From Phenylobacterium sp. (GTDB taxonomy: Bacteria > Pseudomonadota > Alphaproteobacteria > Caulobacterales > Caulobacteraceae), in assembly GCF_030693625.1 (NCBI RefSeq), contig NZ_JAUYAF010000035.1, positions 1 to 64,000 on the forward strand: a DNA stretch of 64,000 nt, given 5' to 3'. Shown piece by piece: positions 20,743-35,688 of the stretch. Position 1 is the stretch's first letter. Each line of letters opens with the position of its first letter. The position numbers and the translations under genes were made by a program. The notes below the pieces were generated by a model. That model was not told the DNA's origin. It was given only the letters and a program-made list of their open reading frames with translations, and did not search any database.

Positions 20743-20818
20743 GCGACCGGTCTCTCACGCCATTCGCCCGGGTCCCCACCTCGGCTCGGCGTGAGAGATC
20801 GGCATCGCGCTACCCACC

Positions 20819-23056
20819 ATGTGGCAGCCCGTCAAACTCGTCTTACCCGTGCTTTCCCTGGCTCTGGCGACCCCGGTCATGGCGAGCCTCGATGTCGGTG
20901 GCTCTGGCATAGGCTCCCCTGCCCTGCCGGCGCGCCTGACAGCGGTCGACCACCGGCCAGGAGCGACCCGGGGCTGGACGCTCTCCGACATCGTGGAGGT
21001 GACCCGGATCACCAGCGTTGCGATTAGCGCTGATGGCGCGCGATGGGCTTTCGTCGTCAAACAACCGTCGCTCGATTTGGCTGAGAGCCGCTACGGCCTC
21101 TATGTCGGTACGGGGGACGGCCCTGCGCGCAAGGTGGCTGACAGCGCCTACCTGGCAGATCTGCAGCCGCGGCCAGGCCATAAGACCTGGACCCTACGGG
21201 GCGAGTTTGGTCACGGGGTGCAAGTCTACGACATCGACGATGCCGGCCGACGCACTCCCCGGCTGGTGCATCAACCTCTGTCGCAGGTGGGGGGCGACAC
21301 CAGTCTTGCCCCAAGCGCTAGCGAACCTGCACGCGCCACAGGCGTCCTGGCCTTCGGCTGGAGCCCTGACGGTAAAGCCCTCTGGTACGCGACGCTGCGC
21401 CCCCGCTCGGCCAAACGGCAGCGGGCTTGGCGCGAAGAAGGTCTCGCCTATGTCGATGGCCGGACGACCGCGACAGACTTCTACGCTGAACCTCCCGCGG
21501 AGGCGGTAGAGCTCTGGGTGCGCGAGACACGGTCAGGTCGCGACCAGTTGGTTGCCCAATCACCCGGGGATCGCAGCACCGCCTCTGTGGCCTTCCGAGG
21601 CGGCTCGGTCTTCTGGGATGGCCCGCAGGGTCTGGTCTACCAGCGTCCCGGCCTCTCAGAGACTGGAGCACCAAACCAATCGTCCTGGCGCTTTGACGTA
21701 GCCACAGGCTCATCTGCACCTCAGCCGCAGAGCGGCGGTGTAAGAACCGCCTCAGGCCGGCTGAGGCTCACGCGGCTCGACGGCGGAAAATACGAGCTCT
21801 CCGAGGTTTCGTCCCTGGCGCGCGCGCTCACCTCCCTCGGGTCGGTAAGCTACAGCGGCATGGGCGGCGCGCTGGGGGTTTGGCGAAGCCCAGGCGGCCA
21901 AGTCCTATACGGTGTGCGGCAAGCCGATCGCCTTGGCTTGGCGGCTTACCCGGCGCAGACACCTCTCAGCCAGGTGAGGGAGAGTCTCCATCCCTGCGCA
22001 TTCGACGAGAGCCTTCGGGTCGGGGTCTGCGGCCGCGAAAGCCTGACCCGCGCCCCGGAGTTGGTGAAGGTGGGGCCGTCCACCGGAGCTGTCCGTGTTC
22101 TTGCGCGGCCCAATGCGCGCTATGACACCATCTCGCCGCTAACCAGCGAGCCTGCGACGTGGACCAACCGTTTCGGCACGGTCAGCGGCGGCTACATAAC
22201 TTACCCGCGCAACTACCAACCAGGGCGGCGCTACCCCGCCATTGTCATCACCCACGCGGCTGACGCCCGAAACCTGTTCGCCGCTGAGACTTTCCAGTGG
22301 GCCTTCCCGCTGCAAGTCCTGGCCGAGCGCGGCTATGTGGTGCTCTCCGTCAATGAGACGACCTCCGATCTGTCGGTCTCAGACGCCTATGGGTCGGCCC
22401 ACAGCAATCTGTCTCCCGCCCGAATGCAACAGGGCATGGGGCTGGACGCCGTGGCCACGATGGAGGCTGCCGTGGCTGACGCTGTCGCCCGCGGTCTCGT
22501 GGACCCACAACGCGTCGGCATCGCCGGCTACAGCCGCGGCGGGATCGTCACGACCCTGGCGCTGAGCCAATCGAAGGTGTTCCGGGCCGGCATAAATGCA
22601 GACACATCCTTCTTCAGCGCCGGCGGCTTTTACCGGGGCGGCATGGTGCGAGAAATCTATCGCGGGCTGTTTGGTGGCCCTCCCCTCGATCCGAGATATG
22701 CCGCCGCTTATCGCGCCTTTTCACCCTCGGCGCGGGCGGACCGGTTCGCCGGCCCCCTCCTACAGTTGTTCACAGGCCGGTCTGCAGCCAGCGCCCTGGA
22801 GTTGGACCAAGCTCTTAAGGAGGCCAAGATCCCGACCAAGCTCATCGCCTATCCCGGCGAGACACACATTCTACATCGGCCACGCACCGCAATGGCGGCG
22901 ATGAAGGCGAGCCTCACCTGGTTTGAAACGTGGCTCGCGGAAGGGGCAGATGGCCGTCAGGTTCTCCCGGTGGGGAGCGGGGCCGGCGACAAGGTGGCCT
23001 TCGACCTAAAACTTGAAGGCGGCGCGGGTGAGATCACCGCGATCACCAAACAGTAG
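20819..23056 (+). CDS. Atxe2-like lasso-peptide isopeptidase (S9 serine peptidase)
   Basis: The 745-residue protein starts with a likely export signal (MWQPVKLVLPVLSLALATPV), then a beta-propeller (DIVEVTRITSVAISADGARW and repeats) and an alpha/beta-hydrolase domain with the nucleophile motif GIAGYSRGGIVTTLAL (Ser572) and His683 in PGETHILHRP, 111 residues later. Its place after an STN receptor and FecIR and near lasso A-B-C genes identifies it as the lasso isopeptidase, which cuts the macrolactam bond and linearises the peptide. Oddly, the segment where the triad Asp is expected reads LLQLFTGRSAASALEL, with no acidic residue until further on, so activity should not be assumed. A plain prolyl-oligopeptidase-like enzyme is the alternative. 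Confidence 0.85.
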   Translation: MWQPVKLVLPVLSLALATPVMASLDVGGSGIGSPALPARLTAVDHRPGATRGWTLSDIVEVTRITSVAISADGARWAFVVKQPSLDLAESRYGLYVGTGDGPARKVADSAYLADLQPRPGHKTWTLRGEFGHGVQVYDIDDAGRRTPRLVHQPLSQVGGDTSLAPSASEPARATGVLAFGWSPDGKALWYATLRPRSAKRQRAWREEGLAYVDGRTTATDFYAEPPAEAVELWVRETRSGRDQLVAQSPGDRSTASVAFRGGSVFWDGPQGLVYQRPGLSETGAPNQSSWRFDVATGSSAPQPQSGGVRTASGRLRLTRLDGGKYELSEVSSLARALTSLGSVSYSGMGGALGVWRSPGGQVLYGVRQADRLGLAAYPAQTPLSQVRESLHPCAFDESLRVGVCGRESLTRAPELVKVGPSTGAVRVLARPNARYDTISPLTSEPATWTNRFGTVSGGYITYPRNYQPGRRYPAIVITHAADARNLFAAETFQWAFPLQVLAERGYVVLSVNETTSDLSVSDAYGSAHSNLSPARMQQGMGLDAVATMEAAVADAVARGLVDPQRVGIAGYSRGGIVTTLALSQSKVFRAGINADTSFFSAGGFYRGGMVREIYRGLFGGPPLDPRYAAAYRAFSPSARADRFAGPLLQLFTGRSAASALELDQALKEAKIPTKLIAYPGETHILHRPRTAMAAMKASLTWFETWLAEGADGRQVLPVGSGAGDKVAFDLKLEGGAGEITAITKQ

Positions 23057-23085
23057 GGTGCGATCGGGCTGGTTGGCGATGTGAG

Positions 23086-23130
23086 TTTGCCTGGAATGTC
23101 GCCAGCTTTAAGGCTCTGGGGTTGATCTAG
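23086..23130 (+). pseudogene. RadC C-terminal remnant 2
   Basis: Fifteen codons ending in TAG read FAWNVASFKALGLI; VASFKALGLI is the invariant end of RadC/JAB proteins. It lies 30 bases after the isopeptidase stop and just before the convergent HipA gene. A second RadC tail is at 13845-13983. Confidence 0.55.
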
Positions 23131-23151
23131 CTGCGGCGGCCTTGATCACGG

Positions 23152-24414
23152 TCAGGGCGGCGGCGGTTCGGGCCGAAATCCCGGATAAACGAAGGCTCCC
23201 GATATCAGCTCGCAGTCGGGCGCGTTCACGCCGGCGCTGCGGGCGACATCGTACCACGTGCTCGCCACCCGCTGCTCCATGTCCGCGATGATGGCGGCAG
23301 CCTCGTCGGGCTTGAGCAGAAAGCGTGGGCTTTGTGAGATCAGGTTTTCCGCCGTGGCGATACGGCCAGCGTCTCCGATCACCAGCGCCAGATCACGGCG
23401 TTCCAGGCTGATCGGGGTCGATGGCGTCAGGTCGTAGGCCGGCGACAGCCGCCAATCCCTGGCCTTGGCGATCATCGCGTGATTGCGCGGGTGATCGTCG
23501 GCGTTGGAGATCAGCGCATTGAAGGCCATCCGGCGGAAAAGCTCGCGCGCATCCCTGGCGGGCTCGGCGCTGACCCGGCGCAGTTCCTCGGCCAGCAGCA
23601 CATAGGACCATCGATCCCGCGCCCGATGGCTGTCCTCCGTCCGCAGGAGGGTCAGGGCGCTGATCATCCGGGCGCGGGTGTAGCCTGCCGCCACGCGGTC
23701 GCGGTCAAAGCGACGGACCATCAGAACGTCTCGCCGTCCCGCCAGCACGACCTTGCTGTCGGCGGCTTCCAGGCCGCAGGACCGGGCAAGCGTGAGCATG
23801 GCGTGTTCGACCCGGGCGCTGTTCCAGCGGTCATCCTGGCGATTGAACTTGGCGATCCATAGAGCGCCCTCGCCCTCGACGACGGCCTTGGGCCTGGCCC
23901 CGCCCATGGAGGTGCCGACCAGAAGCAGATCCTGAATCTGCTGGTTGGCGGCGTCGGGCGCCAGCTCTTCGTCGGCGATCAGGGCGTCGGCGATCCGCTG
24001 CAGCTTCTCCAGTGCGACGGTCTGGTTGAAGTCGCGGCGCGGCGCCGGGGGCTCCGCATTGAGGCCGAAACCCAGGGCGCCGGCGCGGTCGTCGGCGGAG
24101 TGCAGCAGGTAGTCGATTTCTGCGAGTTGCGGCTTGCCGGCATGTTTGTCGATGACGCGGCGGCCCCAATAGTCAGGGCTGGCGTCGCGCAGGGCGCCGA
24201 ACACGCCGCCGAGCGCGGCGGTCTCGTAGGTGCGGGGTGCGAGCTTCAGCTCGACCGGATCGATTTCAACCGCTTCAGGATGCGCCAGGTAGCGTCGGCC
24301 ATAGACGAAGCGTCCGACGGACGTGCCGGTCCTGTCGGTCTCCATGACAAAGCGACCGGCGGTGATCGGCTCAACTGCCCCTGGAAGGGTGATATGGACA
24401 AAGGCCTCTGGCAT
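23152..24414 (-). CDS. HipA-family kinase toxin, module 1
   Basis: The 420-residue protein has the HipA layout: N-terminal couple_hipA region with SVGRFVYGRRYLAHPEAVEI and LRDASPDYWGRRVIDKHAGK, the P-loop-like GTSMGGARPKAVVEGEGALW, catalytic NADDHPRNHAMIAK and metal-binding RLSPAYDLTPS. HipA enzymes phosphorylate protein targets such as aminoacyl-tRNA synthetases and stop growth. The HTH partner lies 5 bases upstream (24420-24761). The pair is inserted between the two halves of the lasso-peptide locus. Confidence 0.9.
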   Translation of the reverse strand: MPEAFVHITLPGAVEPITAGRFVMETDRTGTSVGRFVYGRRYLAHPEAVEIDPVELKLAPRTYETAALGGVFGALRDASPDYWGRRVIDKHAGKPQLAEIDYLLHSADDRAGALGFGLNAEPPAPRRDFNQTVALEKLQRIADALIADEELAPDAANQQIQDLLLVGTSMGGARPKAVVEGEGALWIAKFNRQDDRWNSARVEHAMLTLARSCGLEAADSKVVLAGRRDVLMVRRFDRDRVAAGYTRARMISALTLLRTEDSHRARDRWSYVLLAEELRRVSAEPARDARELFRRMAFNALISNADDHPRNHAMIAKARDWRLSPAYDLTPSTPISLERRDLALVIGDAGRIATAENLISQSPRFLLKPDEAAAIIADMEQRVASTWYDVARSAGVNAPDCELISGAFVYPGFRPEPPPP

Positions 24415-24419
24415 CGGCC

Positions 24420-24761
24420 TTAGAAGTCGTTGTCTAAGGCTTCACCGCGCCGCGCGCGGATCCGGGCCTTGGAGCGTGCAAGAACCTGTCCTTCCTGGTC
24501 GCGAGCTGGGTCGGCCAGGCTGTGCATGTCGGCCAGAAGGTCGAAGGCCCAAAGCAGGGCGGCATAGATCGCGACACTGGTTGTTGGCTTGCCACGTTCG
24601 GCGTCCGACACGGCGCGGCGACCCGCTCCAATCTTCTGAGCGACCTCCTCTACGGTCAGGTTTCGACGCAGGCGCGCTGTCCGCAGGTTCGCCCCGAGTT
24701 CTGTCAGGGCAAGCGCCACGGGATAGGGCGGCGCGAGGAGCAGCATGTTGCGGGCAGGCAT
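24420..24761 (-). CDS. HipB-like XRE antitoxin, module 1
   Basis: The 113-residue product has an XRE HTH (LGANLRTARLRRNLTVEEVA, KIGAGRRAVSDAERGKP, VAIYAALLWAFDLLADM) and a basic C-terminal tail. It should bind the HipA encoded 5 bases downstream and repress the operon. The N-terminal ~15 residues are hydrophobic and the true start might be slightly later. Confidence 0.82.
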   Translation of the reverse strand: MPARNMLLLAPPYPVALALTELGANLRTARLRRNLTVEEVAQKIGAGRRAVSDAERGKPTTSVAIYAALLWAFDLLADMHSLADPARDQEGQVLARSKARIRARRGEALDNDF

Positions 24762-25001
24762 GGGCGTTCAAGAGCCAGTTAGGAGACTTGTTGTGCGTCG
24801 AAACGCAAACCACAATTCCGCAGAGCTTGCAAGGCGCACGCTCTTGAACGTGCTTAACGCCGCCTATCGGGCTTTCAAGAGCGCATTACGAGTGATGGCC
24901 ATAGGAGCGGGCCTTTTTTGGAGCGGGTCGCGGATGTCGGCGAGGGGAGCCCGCGCGGCCGGCGTTGTGATTGGCCCGGTCAGCTGGACTCCTAGGTCAG
25001 C

Positions 25002-25106
25002 GCGGGCATGGACGGGCACGTGGCCAAGCCGATAGATGCGGCAGTACTCTATGCGGCCATGGAAGCCGCGCTTGAACCGGCGGCAGGGCTAGAAGAGGCG
25101 ACGTGA
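25002..25106 (+). pseudogene. C-terminal piece of a response-regulator receiver domain
   Basis: The frame reads AGMDGHVAKPIDAAVLYAAM then EAALEPAAGLEEAT and stop: the last beta-strand/helix of a REC domain with the conserved Lys-Pro, as at the end of a hybrid histidine kinase. No upstream part remains. Confidence 0.6.
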
Positions 25107-25353
25107 GTCGGCCGTAGCCGTGGCAGGCTCTGCAACCGCCGGTGAATAGGGGAGGCCCTTGCCGAAAGCGGTATCGGGATGTCCGCCTTGGGCGGATTGT
25201 GCAGGTACGTGGCCCTCGAGTGAAAACTTGTAGGACAGCGCCGCCTGATCGATCCGATCGATCACCCATCATGGCCGACTTTCCTTCCCGCAAAGGAAGT
25301 GAATCAGCGCCGCATCACGGCTTCAACCCGCCTTTTTCAACACAATCGGTGGA

Positions 25354-25767
25354 TTGCCGCCCTTAGGCGTCGGTCCGGAGGCGCCGTTGCCGGCGCTGCG
25401 CATCCTTATGGCCGAGGACTCGCCCGATAACTGCACGATCGCGCTCGCCTATCTTGAGGACACGCCCTACATCGTCGACGTGGCTGAGACCGGCGTGCTG
25501 GCGTGCCAGATGTTCAAGGCCGGGCGCTACGACCTGGTGCTGATGGACCGCCAGATGCCGGCCATGGACGGCCTGACCGCCACGCGGACCATTCGAGCGT
25601 GGGAACAGGCGAACGATCGGCCGCCCACACCCATTATCGCCCTGACGGCGTCAGCGTTGAAGGGGGATCGAGAAACCTGCCTGGCGGCCGGATGCACGGC
25701 CTATTTGACCGAGATGTTGGCGTTTGCGGTGCCCGGGATTGTCTGGACAGGAATCTCCGCTGGCTAA
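25354..25767 (+). pseudogene. response-regulator receiver domain, 3'-truncated
   Basis: The REC domain runs from LRILMAEDSPDNCTIALAYL (acidic pocket) through DLVLMDRQMPAMDG (phospho-acceptor Asp) and PIIALTASALKGDRETCLAA (conserved Thr/Ser) to GCTAYLTE, where a family member would continue with Lys-Pro-x-Asp. Instead the sequence changes into IS-derived DNA. The TTG start is not convincing; LPALRIL looks like the linker before the last receiver domain of a hybrid kinase. Probably a non-functional fragment. Confidence 0.6.
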
Positions 25768-26150
25768 GTGGGATCTCTGCCGGTTGTGTTTCGCCGGGGT
25801 TGGTGCGTCCCGCAGGGAGGGCCTAGCTCGACTGGAGTGACGCTCCAACCCCGGCGGCGAAAGGCTCATGCCGCCAGGGCCCTGGGGCTGGCGGTCGAAA
25901 TTGGCCTGGTCCGGGGTGCGGGCGCCCAGGCTCGAATGTGGGCGCTTGCGGTTGTAGAACTCCAGATAGCGGCCGCTCGAGGCGCGGGCCTCGGCGACGC
26001 TGTCATAGGCCTTCAGATAGACTTCCTCATACTTGACCGATCGCCAGAGCCGCTCGACGAATACGGTGTCGCGGCCGGCGCCCATGATCAGTGGAATGCG
26101 CATTGAACACCTCCAGACTAGCGCTGACGATGGGCCGTTGACGCTTGTGG
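25712..26150 (-). mobile_element. IS3-family remnant (different from the 2.5-kb element)
   Basis: Minus-strand codons at 25867-26085 encode the end of an IS3 OrfB: GAGRDTVFVERLWRSVKYEE with the catalytic Glu, VYLKAYDSVAEARAS, then YLEFYNRKRPHSSLGARTPD. The first two thirds of the transposase and orfA are absent. The left limit is taken where the receiver domain is interrupted; the right limit is approximate. It lies directly after the 3' end of the lasso C gene. Confidence 0.7.
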
Positions 26151-26167
26151 TTGTGTAAAAAAGTTGG

Positions 26168-27946
26168 TTAGCCTCGGGTGGCCAGATCGCTGCAAGCCGC
26201 CTCCCAGCGTCCAACCCAGGCCTCAAGGACAGCTGCAAATAGGATGGAGACGTAGTCCGCGCCCCAAGCCAACTGCTCAGGTGTAAGCACCGCCTCGAGC
26301 CTGTCGCGGTCAATAATCCTCTGCCCCGCCAACCGCCCGTCGAGCAGGAAGCCGCGTAGAAAAGGCAGGCTCGCGCTCACCCACCGACCGTAGTGGCTGG
26401 TCATATCTCCCTTAGACCTGCGGTGCAGCAAGGCGTCCGGCAGTCGCGAGGCGAAGGCTCCACGCGCAAGAGCACGGTCACGTTTAAGCCCGGTCAGTAC
26501 GTCGATTGGAATGTTTAGGCAGAACTCCACCAGCGGCTGAGAGAGCAGCGGGTGAATGAGATCAGCCTCCCGCGACCTTCGGCAGTCGCCAGTCACCAAC
26601 TGAGCTTGCGCCAGCCGCTCGATCTGCTGGCGCTTGCCAGGAGGCGTTTGGTCCTGCGCGCAAAGCCAAGGATGGACCTCCACCTGGGCGCGCCGCGCGC
26701 CATCGGTCATGAAGCTTGGCCCATTGCCCTCTTTGGCGGGCGCCCGCCGCGAACCTCCGGCCAGCGCTTGGCCCAAGACAGTCCACGCTGAGCTGCCGGT
26801 CCAGTCGGCGAGATCGCGCACGCTGCCTAGCCGCAAACTTCCCAGGCCCTCGCGGCGCAGATGGTCGGTGAGCGCCAGGGCCGTGAGCCTCTGGCCAAAG
26901 ACCGCGTCTCCACCCTGGCCCGTGAAAATCGCGCTTGCGCCCGCGAGGCGGCGCCGCTCGGCCACGTCGGCGTCTCGAAGGTAATCAAGTCCGATCAGCG
27001 AAGGCCGTAGGGCGCCGGCGTTTATCGCAAGGCCCTGCGCATCAATAGGCAGGAACGGCTTGGCCACGCTTGTGATCGAGAAGCCATGCAAGGCGCCTAG
27101 CGCGTTCGCGTAGACCCGTTCGTCGCTCTCGGCGCCGTGGGAATAGTAGTTCAGCCACTGCCTGACCTCCACGTCGGTCCGCCTGGCGAGCGCCGCGGCG
27201 ACAATCGCCGAATCCAGGCCACCCGACACCTCGGCGAGCACAGGGCCACGGCCGCTCGCCAAGGCGCCCACGACTTGGTCGGTAAGCCTCACCAGGCGCC
27301 CCTGGAGGATCGCAGGAGGTTCGTGATCGCCGGTGACAAAGGCGTCGGGCCGCCAGATGGTTGTGCGCACAAACTGGCTGCCCGCCTGCTGCAGCAACTC
27401 GCCAGGCGCGACGGCCGTGATCCCCCGCAGCGCGAGAGGTCCGCTCAGGCTGGTCGGCACAGCCAGGTAACCGGCGATGCGATCCCAATCGAGGGTCATC
27501 GGCGGGGCGAGCAGGTCGACCAGGTCAGCTGGGAGGCTAGAGGCGATCACCGTTAGTCCAGAGCGCGTCCAGGTGAACGCCTCCAACCCGCCCGACGGAT
27601 CTCGTAAAATCGCTGGCCTGTCACCATCAGCCAGGATCGCCACATAGCGGCCCCAGATTCCCGCGCAAAGCGCACGGACCTGGGCTTCGAGAGAAGGACT
27701 GGCCAGCAGCTTGGGGAGGTCGAGCTCAGTGTCACCACCGCGGGTCCAAGCCTCGCCCACCAAGAGGCCGCGGCCATCGGGGAGCACTCGTGTGACCGGC
27801 GCCCTTTGGGTTCTAACCAGGACCGCTGCGCTCGACGTCTTCGTCGCCCAGGTCCAGCGGCCCGACGACGCCTCAGTCAGCGCCATCACAAGGATTGTGG
27901 CAGGCTCTGTGCTGAGATCTCCCCAAAGAGCGACATAGTCTGACAT
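26168..27946 (-). CDS. lasso-peptide macrolactam synthetase (C protein, asparagine-synthetase-like)
   Basis: The 592-residue protein has an N-terminal Ntn-type domain without a Cys at position 2 and an asparagine-synthetase-type ATP-binding domain with EVSGGLDSAIVAAAL (PP-motif at residues 241-246), then NYYSHGAESDERVYANALGA and a later FTGQGGDAVFG. In lasso biosynthesis this enzyme adenylates the side chain of the ring Glu/Asp and closes the isopeptide bond to the new N-terminus. It starts 4 bases after the B gene and ends beside an IS3 remnant. A true asparagine synthetase is unlikely, given the missing Cys and the operon. Confidence 0.9.
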   Translation of the reverse strand: MSDYVALWGDLSTEPATILVMALTEASSGRWTWATKTSSAAVLVRTQRAPVTRVLPDGRGLLVGEAWTRGGDTELDLPKLLASPSLEAQVRALCAGIWGRYVAILADGDRPAILRDPSGGLEAFTWTRSGLTVIASSLPADLVDLLAPPMTLDWDRIAGYLAVPTSLSGPLALRGITAVAPGELLQQAGSQFVRTTIWRPDAFVTGDHEPPAILQGRLVRLTDQVVGALASGRGPVLAEVSGGLDSAIVAAALARRTDVEVRQWLNYYSHGAESDERVYANALGALHGFSITSVAKPFLPIDAQGLAINAGALRPSLIGLDYLRDADVAERRRLAGASAIFTGQGGDAVFGQRLTALALTDHLRREGLGSLRLGSVRDLADWTGSSAWTVLGQALAGGSRRAPAKEGNGPSFMTDGARRAQVEVHPWLCAQDQTPPGKRQQIERLAQAQLVTGDCRRSREADLIHPLLSQPLVEFCLNIPIDVLTGLKRDRALARGAFASRLPDALLHRRSKGDMTSHYGRWVSASLPFLRGFLLDGRLAGQRIIDRDRLEAVLTPEQLAWGADYVSILFAAVLEAWVGRWEAACSDLATRG

Positions 27947-27950
27947 GCGA

Positions 27951-28601
27951 CTAGGCGGTCATCAGCGGCTGATAGGCCGCCAAACCCGTCAAAGGATCGT
28001 CCAACACCGTGCTGCCAATCTGAAGCCAGCAATGGGCCTCAAACGGATAGGTGCGCACGCCAAAAACCCAAGCCGCGTCACACCCCGCCTGGCGCAGTTG
28101 GGTTAGAAGCAGAAAGGCGCGGTGTAGGCAGAGACCGCGACCCACGGCCCAGGGCCAGCGTCGCTGAAAGCTGCTCACGACCGCGATGGCCCGCTTGCAA
28201 GGTATGGCGCTGGGATCAGGCGCGCCCGAAGGCCGGCGACCCGCCCAACTGACCAGCTCGGAAAATGGCAGCCCGTAGCGACGTGCAGGCGCCGTCGCCC
28301 AAGTCATCATCAATCCGCTGAGGATATCGCCGCCCGACACCGGGCGTTCCTGCCGTTCTAGGGCTCGGTCTGCCGGCGGCGCCATCTGGCGGGCGAATAT
28401 GACGTCGCCGGTCAACCCGGCCTGTCCAAGGGCCTCGCCGAGGGCAGGCTGCAGAATTTCGATCTGGGAGCCCCCATTACAGAGGCGCCCCGCCTCGGCC
28501 GCCCCCGCGAGGCAGACATAGGCGTCACGCGCCACATCGAGGAAGACAAGGTCGGCGCCGACCCTTGCCGCATGGATCGAAGCCGCCAATGGCGTCATCA
28601 T
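27951..28601 (-). CDS. lasso-peptide leader peptidase (B protein: RRE plus transglutaminase-like domain)
   Basis: The 216-residue protein joins two parts. Residues ~1-80 look like the RiPP recognition element (DLVFLDVARDAYVCL strand pair), which binds the precursor leader. Residues ~95-216 are the transglutaminase-like cysteine protease with Cys158 in GRGLCLHRAFLL, His190 in FEAHCWLQIG and Asp201/202 in VLDDPLTG. It removes the leader after the Thr-x site and hands the core to the C protein. As in other proteobacterial loci B is one fused protein, not split into B1 and B2. Confidence 0.9.
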   Translation of the reverse strand: MMTPLAASIHAARVGADLVFLDVARDAYVCLAGAAEAGRLCNGGSQIEILQPALGEALGQAGLTGDVIFARQMAPPADRALERQERPVSGGDILSGLMMTWATAPARRYGLPFSELVSWAGRRPSGAPDPSAIPCKRAIAVVSSFQRRWPWAVGRGLCLHRAFLLLTQLRQAGCDAAWVFGVRTYPFEAHCWLQIGSTVLDDPLTGLAAYQPLMTA

Positions 28602-28633
28602 GTTGAGGTCTCTTCAATTTTGCGCGGGAAGTT

Positions 28634-28655
28634 GGCGCCGGCTGTCGCCGGCGCC
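28634..28655 (-). promoter_or_regulatory. strong hairpin between lasso A and B genes
   Basis: GGCGCCGGC and GCCGGCGCC form a 9-bp perfect stem with a 4-base loop, 6 bases after the precursor stop. It is not followed by a T-run, so it is more likely an mRNA-stabilising or attenuating hairpin that raises A over B/C than a full terminator. Confidence 0.6.
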
Positions 28656-28661
28656 GGGCCT

Positions 28662-28766
28662 TCAGCCGAAGTAGAGCAGGCCTTCGTCTTCGACCTTGTT
28701 CCCCTCGATCTCGCCTTGCGTGAGACGCTTGGCGCTGCCGAGCCGAATGAGCTTGAAGATGGACAT
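28662..28766 (-). CDS. lasso-peptide precursor (A gene)
   Basis: A 34-codon gene with AGGAGA 10 bases before its ATG. The leader is MSIFKLIRLGSAKRLTQ, with the LGSAK motif common in Caulobacterales precursors and Thr at position -2. The predicted core is GEIEGNKVEDEGLLYFG: Gly1 would be joined to the side chain of Glu9, giving a 9-residue ring and an 8-residue tail in which Leu13, Leu14, Tyr15 or Phe16 could lock the thread. Asp10 would need a 10-residue ring and is unlikely. It lies 60 bases before the B gene on the same strand. The exact sequence does not match any lasso peptide I remember. Confidence 0.88.
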   Translation of the reverse strand: MSIFKLIRLGSAKRLTQGEIEGNKVEDEGLLYFG

Positions 28767-28836
28767 GGGAATGTCTCCTGTGGGCCGCCGGAATGACGGT
28801 CTCTCAAGCTGAGTGGCTCGAGCAGACATCTACAAC

Positions 28837-29559
28837 CTATATCTGCACAATACTGTCACGCGATCCCAGGTCGCGCAGAACGCGCGCGATGAGTTCGGCG
28901 CCGTCGCGCCGTCTACGATGAAATCCAGCCACCGCGCGAGCCTGCTCACCGGGGTCGGTAGCTCTCGTAAGATTTTCTATGAGCCCGCGCGCTTCAGCCT
29001 CGACATCCCCAAACACCACCGCTTCGGCGCGCCGCGCCCATGTCAGGCGCTGGGCCAGACTGCGACGCCAGGCGAGTAAGACGTGGTTTCCGCAAGCTCG
29101 GACCAGGGCGTCGAAGGCGGCTTCGGTCAGCGCCAGAACATCGCCATCCTGGTCTTGCGCACTGACCACGGCGACACCGCGCGCCGGCTCGTTCACCAGC
29201 AGTCGCAAACCCGACAACAGGGCGCACAGATGAGCCTCGTAGAGGTCAGCCAAGTCTACAGCGTCGGCTGGCCAGAGACGGTAGCCGCCGCCCTGTCGCA
29301 CCTCGATCAAACCCTCTCCCGCCAGTCTGGCTAAGGCTTCCCGGATCGGCGTGGGGCTGAGCTTCAGCTCAGCGGCGATGTCCTGAATGATGAGGGGCTG
29401 ACCAGGCCAGACCGCCCCCGTCGCAAGCTGCTGGCGAAGATAGCCGATGGCCAAACCAAAAGGATCTCGACGCAAACTCAAAGCCGTCCCGCCACCAACC
29501 TTAGCGCCTCCCAAGCGATGAGACGGAAGGTTAGGCGGGGAGAACAGCCGACCGCTCAT
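28837..29559 (-). CDS. GntR-family regulator upstream of the lasso genes
   Basis: From ATG 29559 (MSGRLFSPPNLPSHRLGG) the product has 240 residues: a GntR winged helix (FGLAIGYLRQQLATGAVWPG, IIQDIAAELKLSPTPIREAL, LIEVRQGGGYRLW) and a helical FCD-like C-terminal domain. The frame is open to 29808, but the extra part looks non-coding, and a GGTGCA-C-TGCACC dyad lies at 29574-29586 before this start. It reads in the same direction as A-B-C and ends 70 bases before the A gene, so it may control the locus or belong to its operon. Confidence 0.8.
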   Translation of the reverse strand: MSGRLFSPPNLPSHRLGGAKVGGGTALSLRRDPFGLAIGYLRQQLATGAVWPGQPLIIQDIAAELKLSPTPIREALARLAGEGLIEVRQGGGYRLWPADAVDLADLYEAHLCALLSGLRLLVNEPARGVAVVSAQDQDGDVLALTEAAFDALVRACGNHVLLAWRRSLAQRLTWARRAEAVVFGDVEAEARGLIENLTRATDPGEQARAVAGFHRRRRDGAELIARVLRDLGSRDSIVQI

Positions 29560-29852
29560 ATATCTGGGAAATAGGTGCACTGCACCGCCAAGCCCTTGCG
29601 GGCCGTGTCTCAACCGACCGATCTTCCGCACATCCAGGTTGTAGACGCTTTGAGATAACGCCGCTCTCCGCGGACCCGGCGCGCGCCACCTCGCCCCCAA
29701 CTCCTCCGCAACAATCTTGCGGAGTTCACTGACCCGCCTTGCAGGCGTAGCGGTTTGACCTTGCCGATGTGCAACGCCCCAGCGATCAGCGGCCTGGAAC
29801 AACCGCAACTCGGCTTCAGAGAAAAAACACTCTAGGATTGTTCTGTCGCAGT

Positions 29853-30353
29853 ATGATGCTTCTTTCGCCCAAGACCCTCTCGGCCGCCCTCAAGAGCGTT
29901 CGACGCCACCGCAGGCTCACCGTCCAGCAGGTGGCCGATCGGATGGGGCTCGCCAAGCGGACGTACGAGTATTTTGAATCTGATAAGGGCGGCTTGCGTC
30001 TTGATCACCTCGACGCCTTCGCCGAGGCCACCGACAGCGACGCGCGCGCCATTCTCGTCGCGGCCCTGAGCGGCGCGCCCGACTTTGCCTCCGCCTGCGC
30101 CGACACAAAGGCGATGGCGATCCTGTTCTCCACCGTGGCCCGGGTCGAACCCTACTTCACGAGCGCATTGGCGCATCTCACCACGCGCGACCTGGCCGGC
30201 GTTTTCAGTGCAGCCTTCGCCGACTTGATCGGCACCGGCCAGGAACGGCGGGACCAAACCGCGCCGACCACAGTCACGCCACAGACCCAATGTCCCGACG
30301 ACCCACCTCCATCGCCCCCGCAACCCCCAGATCCAGATCGGAGCCGATCATGA
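29853..30353 (+). CDS. XRE-like helix-turn-helix regulator
   Basis: Starting at ATG 29853 (MMLLSPKTLSAALKSV), the 166-residue protein has an HTH in VRRHRRLTVQQVADRMGLAK and RTYEYFESDKGGLRLDHLDA, a helical middle part and a Pro-rich end. Its last 4 bases overlap the start of the LuxR-type gene, so the two are translationally coupled. Coupled regulators of this kind sit at the edge of conjugation regions in related genomes; that they control transfer here is inference. Confidence 0.7.
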   Translation: MMLLSPKTLSAALKSVRRHRRLTVQQVADRMGLAKRTYEYFESDKGGLRLDHLDAFAEATDSDARAILVAALSGAPDFASACADTKAMAILFSTVARVEPYFTSALAHLTTRDLAGVFSAAFADLIGTGQERRDQTAPTTVTPQTQCPDDPPPSPPQPPDPDRSRS

Positions 30354-30601
30354 CCCCCTCTGGCCCGCCGCCACCCTACCTGCCGCAAACCTGGCCACGG
30401 GTGAGCACCCGCCAACTTCAGTGCCTGTTTTGGGTTCAGGAGGGCAAAAGCGCCAATGACATCGGCGCCATCCTAGGCATCTCAGGCCGCACCGTAGAGG
30501 GGCATCTGCAGCAGGCTTGCGAGTTGCTTGGCGTCCGGACGCGCTTCCAAGCCGTACTGCGCGCCCGGGATCTGGGTCTCCTGGCGCCTGAACATGGCTA
30601 G
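30350..30601 (+). CDS. LuxR-type HTH protein
   Basis: The 83-residue product (MTPSGPPPPYLPQTWP) is essentially one LuxR/GerE HTH: STRQLQCLFWVQEGKSANDI, AILGISGRTVEGHLQQACEL, GVRTRFQAVLRARDLGLL. It has no sensing domain. Its ATG overlaps the preceding regulator's stop (ATGA). Confidence 0.85.
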   Translation: MTPSGPPPPYLPQTWPRVSTRQLQCLFWVQEGKSANDIGAILGISGRTVEGHLQQACELLGVRTRFQAVLRARDLGLLAPEHG

Positions 30602-30761
30602 TGAGATGCGCCCATTGGCGCAGCTCGCTCTTCACGAGCCCCCGCCCTGGGCTGGCACACGACTATGGCCTCTCCTGCAGGCGCGACAACTGGCGCCCGG
30701 TCCCTGAAATCAACCAGCGGCGCGCTTGAGCGCTGCAAGCAAGCCCGTTCGCAGGAACCTC

Positions 30762-30893
30762 ATTGCACCATAAACAGTGCCTTATCTGTCTTTAAGCGCT
30801 TTTTTTAGTGCGCATCTACGTTAGTCGGCTTGTAGGAAGCGGGATTGCACCATAAATGTTGCATTATCCTCATTAAGGCTCCTGTTTTGGTGC
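30762..30893. repeat. two ~50-bp direct repeats before hipBA module 2
   Basis: 30762-30811 and 30844-30893 share ATTGCACCATAAA, TGC-TTATC, TTAAG, a T-run and final GTGC at the same spacing, offset by 82 bases. They lie directly before the hipB-like gene and look like duplicated operators or promoters. Confidence 0.75.
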
Positions 30894-30897
30894 AATC
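30843..30897. promoter_or_regulatory. inverted-repeat operator ending at the hipB start codon
   Basis: GATTGCACCA (30843-30852) and TGGTGCAATC (30888-30897) are exact 10-base inverted arms; the second touches the ATG at 30898. No ribosome site is visible there, so the message may be leaderless or poorly translated. Confidence 0.65.
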
Positions 30898-31227
30898 ATG
30901 AAGTCTTCCAAGGCCCAATCTGCTCTGCCATTGCCAGTTCGCCGCGCCCTGGCGAACCTCGGCCGTGATATCTCCACAGCGCGCCGCCGTCGCAGCATGA
31001 CCATAGCCACCCTGGCCGAACGCGCCTTTGTCGGCCGCAACACCATCACCCGCGTTGAGAGAGGCGACCCAGGCGTGGGCCTCGGCATCTACGCGACGGT
31101 TCTGTTTGTCCTGGGCCTGGCTGATCGGCTCGGCGCCTTGGCCGATCCCGCTACCGACCAAGTCGGCCTGACATTGGCGGCGGAGCAATTGCCACAACGG
31201 GTTCGCACCGCGGCGAAGGTCCGCTGA
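30898..31227 (+). CDS. HipB-like XRE antitoxin, module 2
   Basis: The 109-residue protein has an XRE HTH: LANLGRDISTARRRRSMTIA, ERAFVGRNTITRVERGDPGV, and LGIYATVLFVLGLADRLGAL with an ADPATDQVG segment typical of HipB partners in this order. It overlaps nothing and is followed 2 bases later by hipA. It is similar in layout to module 1 (the shared pattern IYA.L.....LAD....LADPA.D..G). Confidence 0.85.
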   Translation: MKSSKAQSALPLPVRRALANLGRDISTARRRRSMTIATLAERAFVGRNTITRVERGDPGVGLGIYATVLFVLGLADRLGALADPATDQVGLTLAAEQLPQRVRTAAKVR

Positions 31228-31229
31228 CG

Positions 31230-32468
31230 ATGGACCGCGAGATCGACGTTCACATCGACTGGGCAGGCGCCACCCGACCCGTGGGCCGCCTCTGGGCGCG
31301 CGCCAGAGGCGCGCGTCAGACCTGCTCGTTCGCTTACGACCCTGCCTGGCTGGCCCTTGGTGGCGCCTTTCCGCTCGACCCAAACCTCCCCCTGGTGCGC
31401 GGTGACGCCCATTGGGACGGCGGGCTGTTCAACGCTCTCAGCGACCCAGCGCCCGACCGCTGGGGCCGAAATCTAATGGGCCGTCGTGAGCGTGCCGCAG
31501 CTGCCGCCGAAGGCCGGGCGCCCCGCACTCTTCTAGAGGCCGACTTCCTCATGTTGGTGGAGGACCAGACGCGCCTCGGCGCCCTACGCTTCCGTGATAA
31601 GGACGCCCAAGCTTTCCAGGCGGCAGGCACCTCTCCCGTGCCACCGCTTATCGCACTGCCCAAACTGCTCGGAGCAACGCGCCGGATCCTCGACGATAAG
31701 GAGACCGATGACGATCTGCGCTTGCTGTTGGCCCCCGGCAGCTCGCTGGGCGGCGCCCGGCCCAAGGCTTCTGTGCTTGGAACCGACGGCCAACTGCTGA
31801 TGGCCAAGTTCCCCAGTCAGACTGACGACTGGCCCATCCCGACCTGGGAGTCGGTGGCCCTGACCCTGGCCAGACAGGCTGGCGTCCTTGTTCCCACCTT
31901 CCAGCTGCGTCAGGTGGCCAAGCGGCCGGTGCTCATGATGGCCCGCTTTGACCGTGCGCCGGACGGCCGCCGGCCGTTCTGCTCGGCGCTCACAGCGCTC
32001 GGCGCCGCCGACGGCGAAACACGTAGCTATATGGAACTTGTCGATTTCCTTCGGCAGGACGGTGAGGACGCCCCAGGCGACGCCGCTCAGCTTTGGCGGC
32101 GGATGGTGTTCAACATTCTTATCTCCAACACCGACGATCACCTGCGAAACCACGGCTTCTTACGCGAGAAGGGCGGATGGCGGCTATCGCCTGCCTACGA
32201 TCTGAACCCCATGCCCACGGACGTAAAACCCAGGGTGCACGCCCTGGCTCTCAATGAGACCGATCAGGACGCCTCACTCGACACAGCTTTCAGCGTCGCC
32301 AGCCACTTCAGGCTTAGCAAGGCAGAGGCGAGCACGATCGCAAAGAGCGTCGGCCAGGTGGTGGCGAGGTGGCGCGATACGGCGGCCCAGCATAACCTTA
32401 CCGTCAACCAGATCGAGCGGATGGCCAGCGCCTTCGAACACGACGATCTGGAGGCCGCCACAGTCTGA
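31230..32468 (+). CDS. HipA-family kinase toxin, module 2
   Basis: The 412-residue protein has GRLWARARGARQTCSFAYDP and ALSDPAPDRWGRNLMGRRER in the N-terminal region, the GSSLGGARPKASVLGTDGQL P-loop region, the catalytic NTDDHLRNHGFLREKG and RLSPAYDLNPMP. All kinase motifs appear intact. It is predicted to phosphorylate a cellular target unless bound by HipB. It resembles module 1 in several motifs (SPAYDL, DDH.RNH), but the N-terminal half differs, so the three modules here are not recent duplicates. Confidence 0.9.
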   Translation: MDREIDVHIDWAGATRPVGRLWARARGARQTCSFAYDPAWLALGGAFPLDPNLPLVRGDAHWDGGLFNALSDPAPDRWGRNLMGRRERAAAAAEGRAPRTLLEADFLMLVEDQTRLGALRFRDKDAQAFQAAGTSPVPPLIALPKLLGATRRILDDKETDDDLRLLLAPGSSLGGARPKASVLGTDGQLLMAKFPSQTDDWPIPTWESVALTLARQAGVLVPTFQLRQVAKRPVLMMARFDRAPDGRRPFCSALTALGAADGETRSYMELVDFLRQDGEDAPGDAAQLWRRMVFNILISNTDDHLRNHGFLREKGGWRLSPAYDLNPMPTDVKPRVHALALNETDQDASLDTAFSVASHFRLSKAEASTIAKSVGQVVARWRDTAAQHNLTVNQIERMASAFEHDDLEAATV

Positions 32469-32581
32469 CTTGGCCAAGAGCGGCGCCTCGGTTCGTCATC
32501 GCCGCCCGCACACTAAATCCCTACACGTTCATCGGTCTGACGCCTCCTTCGATCAGCAATGATGGCAGGTTGGCCGAGCCC

Positions 32582-33172
32582 CTATGACCTGGCAAAATCT
32601 AGCAGAGGGCCGATGTCATGGTTGTCGGCTGCGCGAACGGCTGCGATGTAGCGTTTTCGCAACTGATCGGCAGCGATCAGGCCGCCGCCGCCCCAGCTGA
32701 ATCTGTCGCCGCCGAGTTGAACCGATAACAGGTCGGCCGCGAGACGGGCGTGTCGACCGTTGCCGTTCGGAAATGGATGGATCCAGGTAAGTTGTGCGTG
32801 AAAGCGAAGGGCTATCTCATCACGTGGGAAGGTCTCGTGCTCGATCCAATAGCCAACGTCATCGAGTAGCCGTCGCAGCTCGACGGCGATCATGTAGGCC
32901 GGCACTCCGATGTTGCGCTCCGTGACCCTGAAGGCGCCGGCCCACTTCCAAACGGCGTGAAACATCGTCCTGTGGAGTTGGAGGAGGAAGCGTTCGTCGA
33001 GCGCATCACGTTTGCGGCTGAAAGCCCAGCGGTCCGCCTCAGCGATGCCGAGTTGCTCAATCTCGTTCAGTTCGTCCCGATTGGTGATGTAGCTTGGGAT
33101 GAGGTCATGTCGCTCCTCTGGATCGAGGGGCGTTGAAGCGTCGTCCTCCGCATCGATCAGCGGGTCGATCAT
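32582..33172 (-). CDS. Fic/DOC family protein ('mobile mystery protein B')
   Basis: The 196-residue protein has the Fic motif HPFPNGNGRHARLAAD (His132), so it should transfer AMP or a similar group to target proteins. The N-terminus (DLIPSYITNRDELNEIEQLG) and WAGAFRVTERNIGVPAYMI match the family named mobile mystery protein B, found on many mobile elements. Its ATG overlaps the stop of the HTH partner upstream. The pair looks like a toxin-antitoxin system, though this has not been shown for most members. Confidence 0.88.
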   Translation of the reverse strand: MIDPLIDAEDDASTPLDPEERHDLIPSYITNRDELNEIEQLGIAEADRWAFSRKRDALDERFLLQLHRTMFHAVWKWAGAFRVTERNIGVPAYMIAVELRRLLDDVGYWIEHETFPRDEIALRFHAQLTWIHPFPNGNGRHARLAADLLSVQLGGDRFSWGGGGLIAADQLRKRYIAAVRAADNHDIGPLLDFARS

Positions 33173-33642
33173 AGATCCGCCCAGAGGCGCCGATCACTAC
33201 GCAATAGTTCGCCCGCCAGCGCTTCGCGCGCGCGTTCCATGCGCTGCTTGCTCACCCCTTGATTCTCAAGGTGCATCGTGTGGCTGGTGCGCTCGAGCTG
33301 CAGCTGAGCGACATATCGCGCGCGGTCTTTCACAACGTCCTCAAGGGGTTTTCGAGGAACGATCGCATAGACGAAGTCGCAATCGAGCGCCTCGGCCGCC
33401 TGGCGCAAGCTTTTGAGGGTCACCACTTCATTGGCTTCGGCGCGCTCAAGCGCAGCGACGCGTGGCTGCGAGACGCCTAATCGCGATGCGAATTGACCCG
33501 TCGTCATTCCGATAGCTTCTCGAATGGCGCGAATCCAACCGCGGTCAGGCCGAATAGGGGGCTTTATGTCCCGCATTGGCTTGAGCTGGACGTCTATCGC
33601 CCAGCGCGCGAGCGGGTTCGAACTACGCCTCGCAGAACTCAT
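33169..33642 (-). CDS. HTH protein ('mobile mystery protein A')
   Basis: The 157-residue product has an XRE HTH (WIRAIREAIGMTTGQFASRL, GVSQPRVAALERAEANEVVT, LKSLRQAAEALDCDFVYAIV) followed by PRKPLEDVVKDRARYVAQLQ and LERTSHTMHLENQGV, matching mobile mystery protein A. It is coupled to the Fic gene by a 4-base overlap. A 15-base inverted repeat covers its start codon and upstream region, as expected for autoregulation. AAAGG lies 8 bases before the ATG. Confidence 0.88.
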   Translation of the reverse strand: MSSARRSSNPLARWAIDVQLKPMRDIKPPIRPDRGWIRAIREAIGMTTGQFASRLGVSQPRVAALERAEANEVVTLKSLRQAAEALDCDFVYAIVPRKPLEDVVKDRARYVAQLQLERTSHTMHLENQGVSKQRMERAREALAGELLRSDRRLWADL

Positions 33643-33680
33643 AGATTATACCTTTCGGGATATTTTATAATCTATGAGTT
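33636..33680. promoter_or_regulatory. 45-bp operator with 15-bp perfect arms at the mobile mystery operon
   Basis: AACTCATAGATTATA (33636-33650) and TATAATCTATGAGTT (33666-33680) are exact inverted arms with a 15-base spacer. The first arm contains the start codon of the HTH gene, and each arm contains a -10-like TATAAT. Binding would block both transcription and translation start. Confidence 0.8.
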
Positions 33681-33877
33681 CCAATAATGCAATTCAAATT
33701 GAATCTGTAAGTTATAGCCCTAGTCCGCAATTGGCTTGAAATGACGCTTTACACACCGTCGCAGAGCGCGAGCACCTAATCAAAATGAAGGCTGCAAAGG
33801 GCCTACTCGAAGAGCAGACGGGACGCTCCGCCCGATGGCATCGGCTGGGCTCTTGGCCTTGGGTCATTTGGGCACTG

Positions 33878-34099
33878 TTAAAGCTCAGCGGACCCGGCTT
33901 CGGTGAGCATTACGAACCCATTGGGGCCATTTTTGAACAAGCCGCGCTCCATTCCAGCCTTCAGCCCAATGAGGATACCAGAGGTTCTGAGGCCTTGCTG
34001 GCTGTTGAGCAGCATTCCCTCTCCGGGCTGCAATTTGCGAGCCTTGAAGATATCAAGGACCATTCGCAATCCTTCGTCGGCGGTGGGCAGCTCAGCCAT
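33878..34099 (-). CDS. small winged-helix-like protein (paralogue of 78-305)
   Basis: The 73-residue product has a clear ribosome site (GGAGGAG, 3 bases before ATG 34099), so it is likely a real gene. It begins MAELPTADEGLRMVLDIFKA and ends GLKAGMERGLFKNGPNGF then VMLTEAGSAEL, nearly the same end as the gene at 78-305. Helix-turn-wing pattern suggests DNA or protein binding; the family is not recognised. It lies between the Fic pair and the conjugation operon. Confidence 0.65.
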   Translation of the reverse strand: MAELPTADEGLRMVLDIFKARKLQPGEGMLLNSQQGLRTSGILIGLKAGMERGLFKNGPNGFVMLTEAGSAEL

Positions 34100-34782
34100 T
34101 TACTCCTCCATGCTAAGAGCAAGCATACAGGAGCCGATCCCGGCGAGCGAGCAATAGCCTCGTCAAGCCGGCCCCATTTCAACTGAGACACCACCCGGTG
34201 GGCAGCTTCGACCTCGGCGCAGAACCGAGATCAGGCCAGCCGCAAATTTCGCTCCATTGAGTAAGGCAACGATCGGGGCATCGAGGTAGTGAAGCGCAGA
34301 GGGCAAGCGGTGCGAGGTCCGCCTCCCCGCCTCGAGGTGACATCAGCCATCGCTGAAGGTTTCTCACAAACCATCGCCCAGTCCGTCATCATCCGCAGCG
34401 CTACTAGAACAGGTCCCGCGCCGATAGGCCGCCCCCACCTTTCGCCAATAGTGCGCGATCACCATCTCGACCGCGTCACGTGGAACAGTTGGTTGGCTCC
34501 ATAGGCGAATCCCGATCACCCGGAACGGTCCAGACACCTGCCGTTAGGGCAATCTCACCTATCGCGCTCGACCTCGCCCGAACGTGCGGCGGTGTGACTG
34601 CGCGTGAAACGCCGGACATCAACGATTCATCCGCCACACGCCCGCATCAGTGAGTCCGAAGCGAGGGAGCACCGTAAGTCTACCCGGCCTAGGCGCGTAG
34701 GCTTACGCCTGTCGTCGCGCGGCCACACCACCAAGAATGTCGAGACCCGCCGCCCTTGAGCGGCCCAAGGCCGACAGACGCC
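34100..34782. other. 683-bp region before the conjugation operon, no gene seen
   Basis: Open frames here are short and show no family features. An imperfect inverted repeat, GTAAGTCTAC (34674-34683) and GTAGGCTTAC (34697-34706, 9 of 10 paired), lies ~77 bases before virB1 and may be a control site. The operon promoter should be in this stretch. Confidence 0.4.
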
Positions 34783-35379
34783 ATGATCTTGCCTCTACCC
34801 ATCTACCTAAGTCTCGCAGCCACCTGCGCGCCCCATGTGGCGCCCGACGTGCTCCAGGCGATCATCCAGGTTGAAAGCGGCTTTGACACCCTAGCGATCG
34901 GGGTCAACGGAAAACCTCGCCTTGAGGTGCGCGCAAGGAGCCCCCAGGACGCCGCCATCCAAGCTCGCGCCCTGATCAAGCAAGGGCGAAGCGTCGATAT
35001 GGGATTGGGCCAGATCAACAGCGCCAACCTCGATAGGCTCGGCCTCTCTGTCGAGCAGGTCTTCGAGCCCTGCCTCAACTTGACGGCCGCAGGCCGCATC
35101 CTGGCCGATGGCTATGCCTGGGCGCGCCCGCGCCAGTCCGATGACCAGGCAGGGCTACGAGCGGCACTTTCTATCTACAACACGGGCAGCCCGACACGGG
35201 GCCTGCACAATGGCTACGTGGCGAAGGTGCTACGCGCCGCGCAGCAGCCCGTCGATGCGCAACAAGCACCTCGTCAAGAGCCCGCCAGCTGGGACGTCTT
35301 TGGCCGCGGCCAGCCCCCCGGCGTCTTCCTCATCACCCTTTCAGCGCCCCAGCCGGCAGTAGCGGCAGAGACACCATGA
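34783..35379 (+). CDS. virB1: VirB1-type lytic transglycosylase
   Basis: I start at ATG 34783 (MILPLPIYLSLAATCAPHVA). The 198-residue protein has the SLT fold pattern: LQAIIQVESGFDTLAIGVNG with the catalytic Glu, DMGLGQINSANLDRLGL and LSIYNTGSPTRGLHNGYVAK. It opens peptidoglycan for the type IV secretion channel in the periplasm. First gene of the virB operon; its stop overlaps virB2. Confidence 0.88.
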   Translation: MILPLPIYLSLAATCAPHVAPDVLQAIIQVESGFDTLAIGVNGKPRLEVRARSPQDAAIQARALIKQGRSVDMGLGQINSANLDRLGLSVEQVFEPCLNLTAAGRILADGYAWARPRQSDDQAGLRAALSIYNTGSPTRGLHNGYVAKVLRAAQQPVDAQQAPRQEPASWDVFGRGQPPGVFLITLSAPQPAVAAETP

Positions 35380-35684: not shown

Positions 35685-35688
35685 GCGC

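What the first reader, a model, noticed from the sequence alone, without database searches (positions are those of the whole stretch)
26168..28766. New lasso-peptide locus with precursor core GEIEGNKVEDEGLLYFG
A 34-codon gene missed by ordinary length cut-offs lies in front of clear lasso B (RRE plus Cys158/His190/Asp protease) and C (asparagine-synthetase-like) genes. It has a ribosome site, the LGSAK leader motif, Thr at -2, core Gly1 and Glu9, which together define a class II lasso peptide with a 9-residue ring. The tail DEGLLYFG is unusually acidic and ends in bulky residues plus Gly. I recall no characterised lasso peptide with this sequence.
Basis: partly seen in the sequence, partly recalled or inferred. 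Interest (0 to 1): 0.92.

Follow-up and report, generated by a model that had tools for sequence, protein, structure and literature searches.

The report
Lasso-peptide cluster with swapped opener gene
A Phenylobacterium-like bacterium carries, in a stretch of DNA missing from the same place in two relatives, a gene set predicted to make and take back a knotted 'lasso' peptide, and the gene for the enzyme that would open the knot groups with a different branch of lasso clusters than its neighbours do, which would make a good test of how such enzymes choose their knots.

Summary
A 34-codon gene (28662-28766, minus strand) with a ribosome site precedes lasso B and C genes and encodes MSIFKLIRLGSAKRLTQ|GEIEGNKVEDEGLLYFG. 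In 47 of 50 further loci of the genus a like leader precedes B; Thr stands at -2, and an acid at core position 8 and/or 9, in 42 of 42 distinct precursors. So this is a predicted class II lasso peptide, most likely with a Gly1-Glu9 ring. The core is in no paper searched; its acidity and tail are ordinary for the genus.

Unusual: E falls in the sphingopyxin-I-isopeptidase branch, while C and the receptor fall with clusters that carry another isopeptidase type (AU tests p 4e-5, 2e-4, 0.003). That makes the cluster a mosaic. It lies in a ~33 kb island beside tRNA-Leu with a near-complete VirB/D4 conjugation set; the site is empty in two relatives. Production, threading, import and cleavage are untested. 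New variant of a known kind.

The parts
28662..28766 (-). precursor gene A, 34 codons: leader MSIFKLIRLGSAKRLTQ (28766-28716), core GEIEGNKVEDEGLLYFG (28715-28665), stop 28664-28662
   Evidence: leader motif and Thr(-2) shared with 42 distinct precursors of the genus
28774..28779 (-). AGGAGA, likely ribosome-binding site of A, 7 bases before the ATG
   Evidence: read
27951..28601 (-). lasso B (leader peptidase; putative N-terminal RRE + transglutaminase-like Cys protease)
   Evidence: NCBIfam NF033537 67.5 bits, Pfam PF13471, C158/H190/D202, model mean pLDDT 89.3
26168..27946 (-). lasso C (asparagine-synthetase-like macrolactam cyclase, SGGLDS at residue 241)
   Evidence: Pfam PF00733
28837..29526 (-). 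GntR-type regulator upstream of A; the ORF is open further upstream, start uncertain
   Evidence: Pfam PF00392 52 bits
20819..23056 (+). E: lasso isopeptidase of the sphingopyxin-I branch (S9; Ser572 in GYSRGG, His683, candidate acid Glu661; catalytic roles inferred)
   Evidence: PDB 5jrk 274 bits full length, AtxE2 73 bits C-terminal only; tree; positions
17713..20742 (+). TonB-dependent receptor with N-terminal STN domain
   Evidence: Pfam STN, Plug, barrel
16585..17589 (+). FecR anti-sigma factor
   Evidence: Pfam PF04773 + DUF4880
15862..16566 (+). ECF-type sigma factor (ORF; true start probably downstream)
   Evidence: Pfam Sigma70_r4_2, r4
23152..24761 (-). hipBA pair (HipA 23152-24414, HTH 24420-24761) lying between C and E, not part of the usual lasso layout
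   Evidence: Pfam HipA_C, HTH_31
25880..26120 (-). 3' remnant of an IS3-type transposase directly after C (approximate limits; IS3 by reading)
   Evidence: Pfam rve_3 45 bits in ORF 25651-26313
34756..46725 (.). conjugation genes: VirB1-like SLT, VirB2, B3, B4, B5, B6, B8, B9, B10, B11, TraG/VirD4 (+) and relaxase (-); VirB7 not sought
   Evidence: Pfam
14949..47811 (.). island holding all of the above, between tRNA-Leu (14858-14943) and a WecG-type gene; limits approximate
   Evidence: site empty in G065 and G008

Best explanation
This locus is a lasso-peptide gene cluster, A-B-C with its own isopeptidase and TonB-receptor/FecR/sigma unit, that is predicted to make a 17-residue class II lasso with a likely Gly1-Glu9 ring and then to take it back and open it with an isopeptidase whose gene groups with the sphingopyxin-I branch, unlike the rest of the cluster. 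Shown here: gene content and order, family membership of B, C, E, receptor, FecR and sigma factor, conservation of the leader motif, Thr(-2) and ring acid in related clusters, the conflict between the E tree and the C and receptor trees, and the empty site in two relatives. Inferred from established lasso biochemistry: B binds the leader and cuts after Gln17, C activates Glu9 with ATP and joins it to Gly1 around the threaded tail, with Leu14/Tyr15/Phe16 as likely steric locks; the peptide leaves the cell, returns through the TonB receptor, whose STN domain would signal through FecR to the sigma factor, and E (Ser572/His683) hydrolyses the isopeptide bond to release a linear peptide and any bound cargo. 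The E gene most likely entered by recombination between clusters that travel on mobile DNA.
For: A/B/C. Precursor family: 51 precursors in 47 of 50 genus loci, sought by leader motif without asking for Thr, Gly or an acid; 42 distinct; Thr(-2) 42 of 42; acid at 8 only 17, at 9 only 18, at both 7. The layout, with GntR before A and E-TonB-FecR-sigma on the facing strand, is the one described for isopeptidase clusters (PMC9266682, passages) and recurs in many of the fetched loci. E: 5jrk matches over residues 45-714 with 274 bits, AtxE2 only its C-terminal half with 73 bits; 5jrk is the sphingopyxin I isopeptidase (PMC11878206, passage). E tree: window + 5 other SpI-type proteins one clade, 100/100. 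C tree: holding the four SpI-type clusters together is rejected, p 3.9e-5; receptor tree, six SpI-type rows, p 1.8e-4; the E tree rejects putting window and L151 with the 'long' type, p 0.003. In the genus, 42 of 50 other loci had an E found: 40 best matched by the own genome's other E (long type), 2 of the AtxE2 type, none of the SpI type. A B homologue and an E homologue of 87% each come from contigs of the same stated length, 28,661 bases, probably one contig. Site empty in G065 and G008, which also gave no B match.
Against: No product has been seen. The trees hold 33 to 44 chosen rows with long branches; the C and receptor trees and the E tree are quick ones, warns that long branches meet in the receptor tree (L096 with L149 and others), and the groups for the AU tests, though defined by E type, were tested after the trees had been seen. 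Whether window and L151 C proteins are sisters is undecided (p 0.56). C scores below the NCBIfam lasso-cyclase cut-off. Asp202 is not in the 90% list of the 29-protein B alignment. A hipBA pair, a receiver-domain ORF and a transposase remnant lie between C and E, so the two halves may be regulated apart. Asp10 and Glu11 adjoin Glu9 and could compete as ring acceptors. The metagenomic near relatives (B 97% and 87%) could not be read as DNA, so conservation of this very core is untested.
Confidence: 0.85

Rival explanations
1. The cluster makes a lasso peptide but E is an ordinary divergent descendant of the local isopeptidase, and the tree conflict is a long-branch artefact rather than a gene swap.
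For: Branches are long; window B and C are themselves only about 40% identical to other genus members; long branches meet in the receptor tree.
Against: E aligns full length with 5jrk (274 bits) and S. indica E (301 bits), but gives only about 50 bits to the own genome's other E, while the window's receptor gives 968 bits to that same cluster's receptor. AU tests reject agreement of the trees three ways.
Confidence: 0.1
2. The peptide is chiefly an antibiotic against relatives, spread by the conjugative island, with E serving as self-immunity.
For: Lasso peptides such as microcin J25 kill (PMC7549694, passages); the island also carries toxin-antitoxin-like genes.
Against: The review passages read say that known isopeptidase-cluster lassos, astexin-1 apart, lack antimicrobial activity and that the role is enigmatic (PMC9266682); the receptor has an STN domain and FecR/sigma partners, which points to sensing and uptake; none of the genes named between 15862 and 29526 is an ABC transporter.
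Confidence: 0.2
3. The cluster is decaying: insertions between C and E have uncoupled it and it no longer makes or recycles a peptide.
For: hipBA, a receiver-domain ORF and a transposase remnant lie between C and E.
Against: A, B, C, E, receptor and FecR are all open full-length frames with family signatures and, for B, C and E, active-site motifs; homologues of 97% for B and for E exist in other samples; L151 also has a gene (Fic) between C and E.
Confidence: 0.07

Closest known systems
Caulobacteraceae isopeptidase lasso clusters (caulosegnin/caulonodin kind) and the 50 Phenylobacterium-genus loci fetched here
   Same: A-B-C, GntR before A, facing E-TonB-FecR-sigma; LGxAK/R leader in most, Thr(-2), acid at core 8 or 9; C and receptor group with them
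   Different: their E is the 'long' type (mostly 760-920 aa where complete and unfused) in 40 of 42 cases; this E is another type. Core sequence differs. That caulosegnins and caulonodins are of this leader type is recalled, not tested
Sphingopyxin I isopeptidase (SpI-IsoP, PDB 5jrk) and the lasso plasmid clusters of Sphingopyxis indica pMC4 and Blastomonas sp. RAC04
   Same: isopeptidase of the same clade (the plasmid ones 33% identical); same gene set
   Different: their leaders are of an LGA(A/V)QDET kind, their C and receptor lie outside the window's group, and they are plasmid-borne
G109 cluster (L151), another genus of the same family
   Same: same mosaic: E 47% identical, C 38%, B 37%; core GLSVGLIPEEAAKPYNGG; a foreign gene between C and E
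   Different: Fic instead of hipBA; core unlike; contig ends inside the receptor
Astexin-2/3 isopeptidase AtxE2 (PDB 5txc, 5txe)
   Same: S9 isopeptidase of lasso clusters, C-terminal hydrolase domain alignable
   Different: only 73 bits; NCBIfam Atxe2 model 188.6 bits against a cut-off of 400

Membership tests
lasso peptide cluster | B protein: transglutaminase-like leader peptidase with Cys-His-Asp | tested here: met
   NF033537 67.5 bits over cut-off 33; C158, H190, D202 invariant in 11; D202 not in the 90% list of 29
lasso peptide cluster | RRE domain that binds the leader (fused to B here) | tested here: inconclusive
lasso peptide cluster | C protein: asparagine-synthetase-like cyclase | tested here: met
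   PF00733 76.8 bits over gathering 21; below NCBIfam lasso cyclase cut-off
lasso peptide cluster | precursor with Thr at -2, usually Gly at 1, acid at core 7-9 | tested here: met
   sequence; Thr and acid in 42 of 42, Gly1 in 28 of 42 distinct genus precursors
class II lasso peptide | no disulfide | tested here: met
   core has no Cys
class II lasso peptide | threaded isopeptide-bonded product | not testable with these tools
   needs mass spectrometry
isopeptidase-containing lasso cluster | GntR before A, isopeptidase, TonB receptor, sigma/anti-sigma pair | tested here: met
   definition from PMC9266682 passages
Atxe2 family isopeptidase (NCBIfam NF033523) | score over curated cut-off 400 | tested here: not met
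   188.6 bits
SpI-IsoP type isopeptidase | full-length similarity to SpI-IsoP and clade with SpI-IsoP-like proteins | tested here: met
   (5jrk itself was not a row of the tree)
SpI-IsoP type isopeptidase | cleaves its cognate threaded lasso only | not testable with these tools
   biochemical assay needed
integrative conjugative element | conjugation genes and relaxase on a discrete insertion | tested here: met
integrative conjugative element | site-specific integrase and att repeats | tested here: inconclusive
   no site-specific integrase among the ORFs scanned; not every island ORF was scanned; no convincing flanking direct repeat

The most novel reading that the evidence does not exclude
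A conjugative island carries a complete make-export-sense-import-open lasso circuit in which the opening enzyme was replaced by one from another lasso lineage and has been retuned to a new knot, showing that isopeptidase specificity evolves as a swappable module, separately from the receptor and the biosynthetic genes.
Probability: 0.5. Interest if true: 0.6.

Novelty: new variant of a known kind. Interest (0 to 1): 0.42.

Why it matters
Isopeptidases are reported to open only their own lasso (of 24 lassos tested with SpI-IsoP only SpI itself was opened), with the loop shape as the main recognition element, and why alphaproteobacteria make, import and open these peptides is unknown (PMC9266682, passages). 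A natural cluster whose isopeptidase lineage was exchanged, in a genome with a second cluster of the usual type, gives a direct test of what sets specificity, and its place on a conjugative island suggests how such exchanges happen. The precursor itself adds one more predicted core to a family that is rich in this genus (B matches in 37 of 101 genomes).

Tried and rejected

Rows left out: of 55 rows the window's own and three weak ones (G036:C11, G048:C185, G026:C1) were not fetched, and one more lies inside L095. In one search the leader rule also asked for a Met, a length range and closeness to B, and two candidates were dropped by name; L065, L091 and L092 gave none by that rule (L091 and L092 show variant leaders; L065's contig begins at B). 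Trees used 41 loci plus the window (E: plus L152, L153), or 32 plus the window (receptor and E: plus L152, L153), after leaving out near-duplicates, short contig-end pieces and four loci with fused ORFs; the C tree and the trees are quick ones, and the receptor build failed. Loci that came automatically were mostly not used.

Full report
Observation. The minus-strand frame 28766-28662 encodes MSIFKLIRLGSAKRLTQ GEIEGNKVEDEGLLYFG, with AGGAGA seven bases before the ATG; B (28601-27951) and C (27946-26168) follow. B is lasso_biosyn_B2 (67.5 bits, cut-off 33) and Transglut_core3; C is Asn_synthase with SGGLDS at residue 241, though below NCBI's lasso-cyclase cut-off. Cys158, His190 and Asp202 of B are invariant in 11 aligned proteins; in 29, fragments included, Asp202 falls below the 90% list. 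An AlphaFold2 model of B has mean pLDDT 89.3 and a beta-rich N-terminal domain plus a mixed C-terminal one; its RRE identity stays open.

Is it more than chance? The combined leader-core pattern occurs once in the window and once in total in 20 simulated windows. Independent evidence comes from relatives. Searching 101 genomes of the genus with B gave matches in 37. I fetched 50 loci. With a leader rule that does not ask for Thr, Gly or an acid, 51 precursors were found in 47 of 50 loci, 42 of them distinct: Thr at -2 in 42, first core residue Gly 28, Ala 11, others 3, acid at core position 8 only 17, 9 only 18, both 7.

The core. Glu9 is the likely ring acceptor; Asp10 and Glu11 are the alternatives. 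Similar cores in the genus are GELDGNAVEIDDRLYFKP, GNPDGDEVEIDEQLYFKP and GFDDGSKEEPDMTLYFP; the first belongs to the best hit, after the window itself, of a precursor search in 390 family genomes (48% identity, E 1e-4). The predicted lasso mass is 1849.873. The core string is in no held paper.

The other half of the cluster. A GntR gene lies before A (28837-29526); on the facing strand lie a sigma factor, FecR, a TonB receptor with an STN domain and an S9 peptidase (15862-23056). This is the layout that a review describes for isopeptidase clusters (PMC9266682, passages). The same passages say that AtxE1, AtxE2 and SpI-IsoP act on lassos of their own cluster, that variants and a chimeric lasso with the right loop shape can still be accepted, that the known lassos of such clusters, astexin-1 apart, lack antimicrobial activity, and that their role is enigmatic.

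The odd isopeptidase. The window's E aligns over residues 45-714 with PDB 5jrk (274 bits) but only by its C-terminal half with AtxE2 (73 bits). 5jrk is the sphingopyxin I isopeptidase (PMC11878206, passage). The own genome's second cluster on contig C36 (core GQQSGTKNELDERPYNPAG) has an 807-residue E that shares only 50 bits with the window's E, although the two receptors share 968 bits. Among the 50 other genus loci an E was found in 42: 40 best matched by that long type and 2 of the AtxE2 type, which score 520 and 482 bits on the NCBI Atxe2 model. In 390 family genomes a full-length SpI-type E was found in four (own, G109, G256, G329; a fifth hit, G120, covers the C-terminal part only), and in a sample of 385 class genomes only in its own.

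Trees. For E, six SpI-type rows form one clade (100/100) in which the window pairs with L151 from G109 (100/99). For C, the window and L151 lie with the long-type clusters (SH-aLRT 98, quick tree), and a tree that holds the four SpI-type clusters together is rejected (p 3.9e-5). For the receptor's C-terminal 460 residues holding six SpI-type rows together is rejected (p 1.8e-4), and the E tree rejects putting the window and L151 with the long type (p 0.003). Cautions: long branches, quick trees, groups tested after one search was seen. The data do not decide whether window and L151 C proteins are sisters (p 0.56). The simplest reading is that E was exchanged in an ancestor of, or separately in, these two clusters. 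Homologues of B (97% to about 56%) and E (97% to about 44%) exist in metagenomes, with matching contig lengths for two pairs, so the pairing is probably older than this strain.

The island. In G065 the left flank (SapC gene, tRNA-Leu) and the right flank (WecG-type gene) are about 1.0 kb apart; in G008 tRNA-Leu and the WecG-type gene are about 0.2 kb apart, with the SapC stretch rearranged nearby; here the distance is 32.9 kb. Neither relative gave a B match. The extra DNA holds the lasso cluster, two hipBA-type pairs, a Fic gene, ten VirB-type genes, TraG and a relaxase. No site-specific integrase was found among the ORFs scanned. The SpI-type clusters of S. indica and Blastomonas are on plasmids, one typed conjugative, one mobilizable. 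Movement of clusters on such elements would give the chance for an exchange of E; this step is inference.

Verdict. A real, predicted-functional class II lasso cluster of a known layout, with a new core and a mosaic isopeptidase. The core alone would be one more member of a rich family; the mosaic is what a specialist would want to test.

Noticed in passing
G000 contig C36, L048:9660-19372: A second lasso cluster in the same genome: core GQQSGTKNELDERPYNPAG, long-type isopeptidase, receptor, FecR, sigma factor. The identical core occurs in G037 (L057).
   Followed up: partly
window 14949-47811: Island beside tRNA-Leu; the site is empty in G065 and G008; near-complete VirB/D4 set and relaxase but no site-specific integrase seen.
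   Followed up: partly
L152 (G256:C1:630000-648000) and L153 (G329:C186:343000-361000): SpI-type isopeptidase + TonB receptor + FecR/sigma genes with no lasso B or C match within the 18 kb held: possible orphan uptake-and-open sets that would use lassos made by others. Both genomes have other lasso B genes elsewhere.
   Followed up: partly
window 23152-24761, 30898-32468, 32582-33642: Two hipBA-type pairs and a Fic/HTH pair around the lasso cluster; in L151 a Fic gene lies in the same C-E gap.
   Followed up: partly
L154, L155, L090, L085, L054, L096, L007, L010, L014, L015: Clusters with two precursor genes of different cores before one B gene.
   Followed up: no
window 53507-55123: Serralysin-like M10 C-terminal domain and RTX repeats.
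   Followed up: no
NCBIfam NF033523: Neither the SpI-type nor the long-type lasso isopeptidases scanned reach the Atxe2 model's cut-off (8 of 10 proteins: 43 to 193 bits against 400; the 2 AtxE2-type ones pass), so annotation pipelines are likely to miss them.
   Followed up: partly
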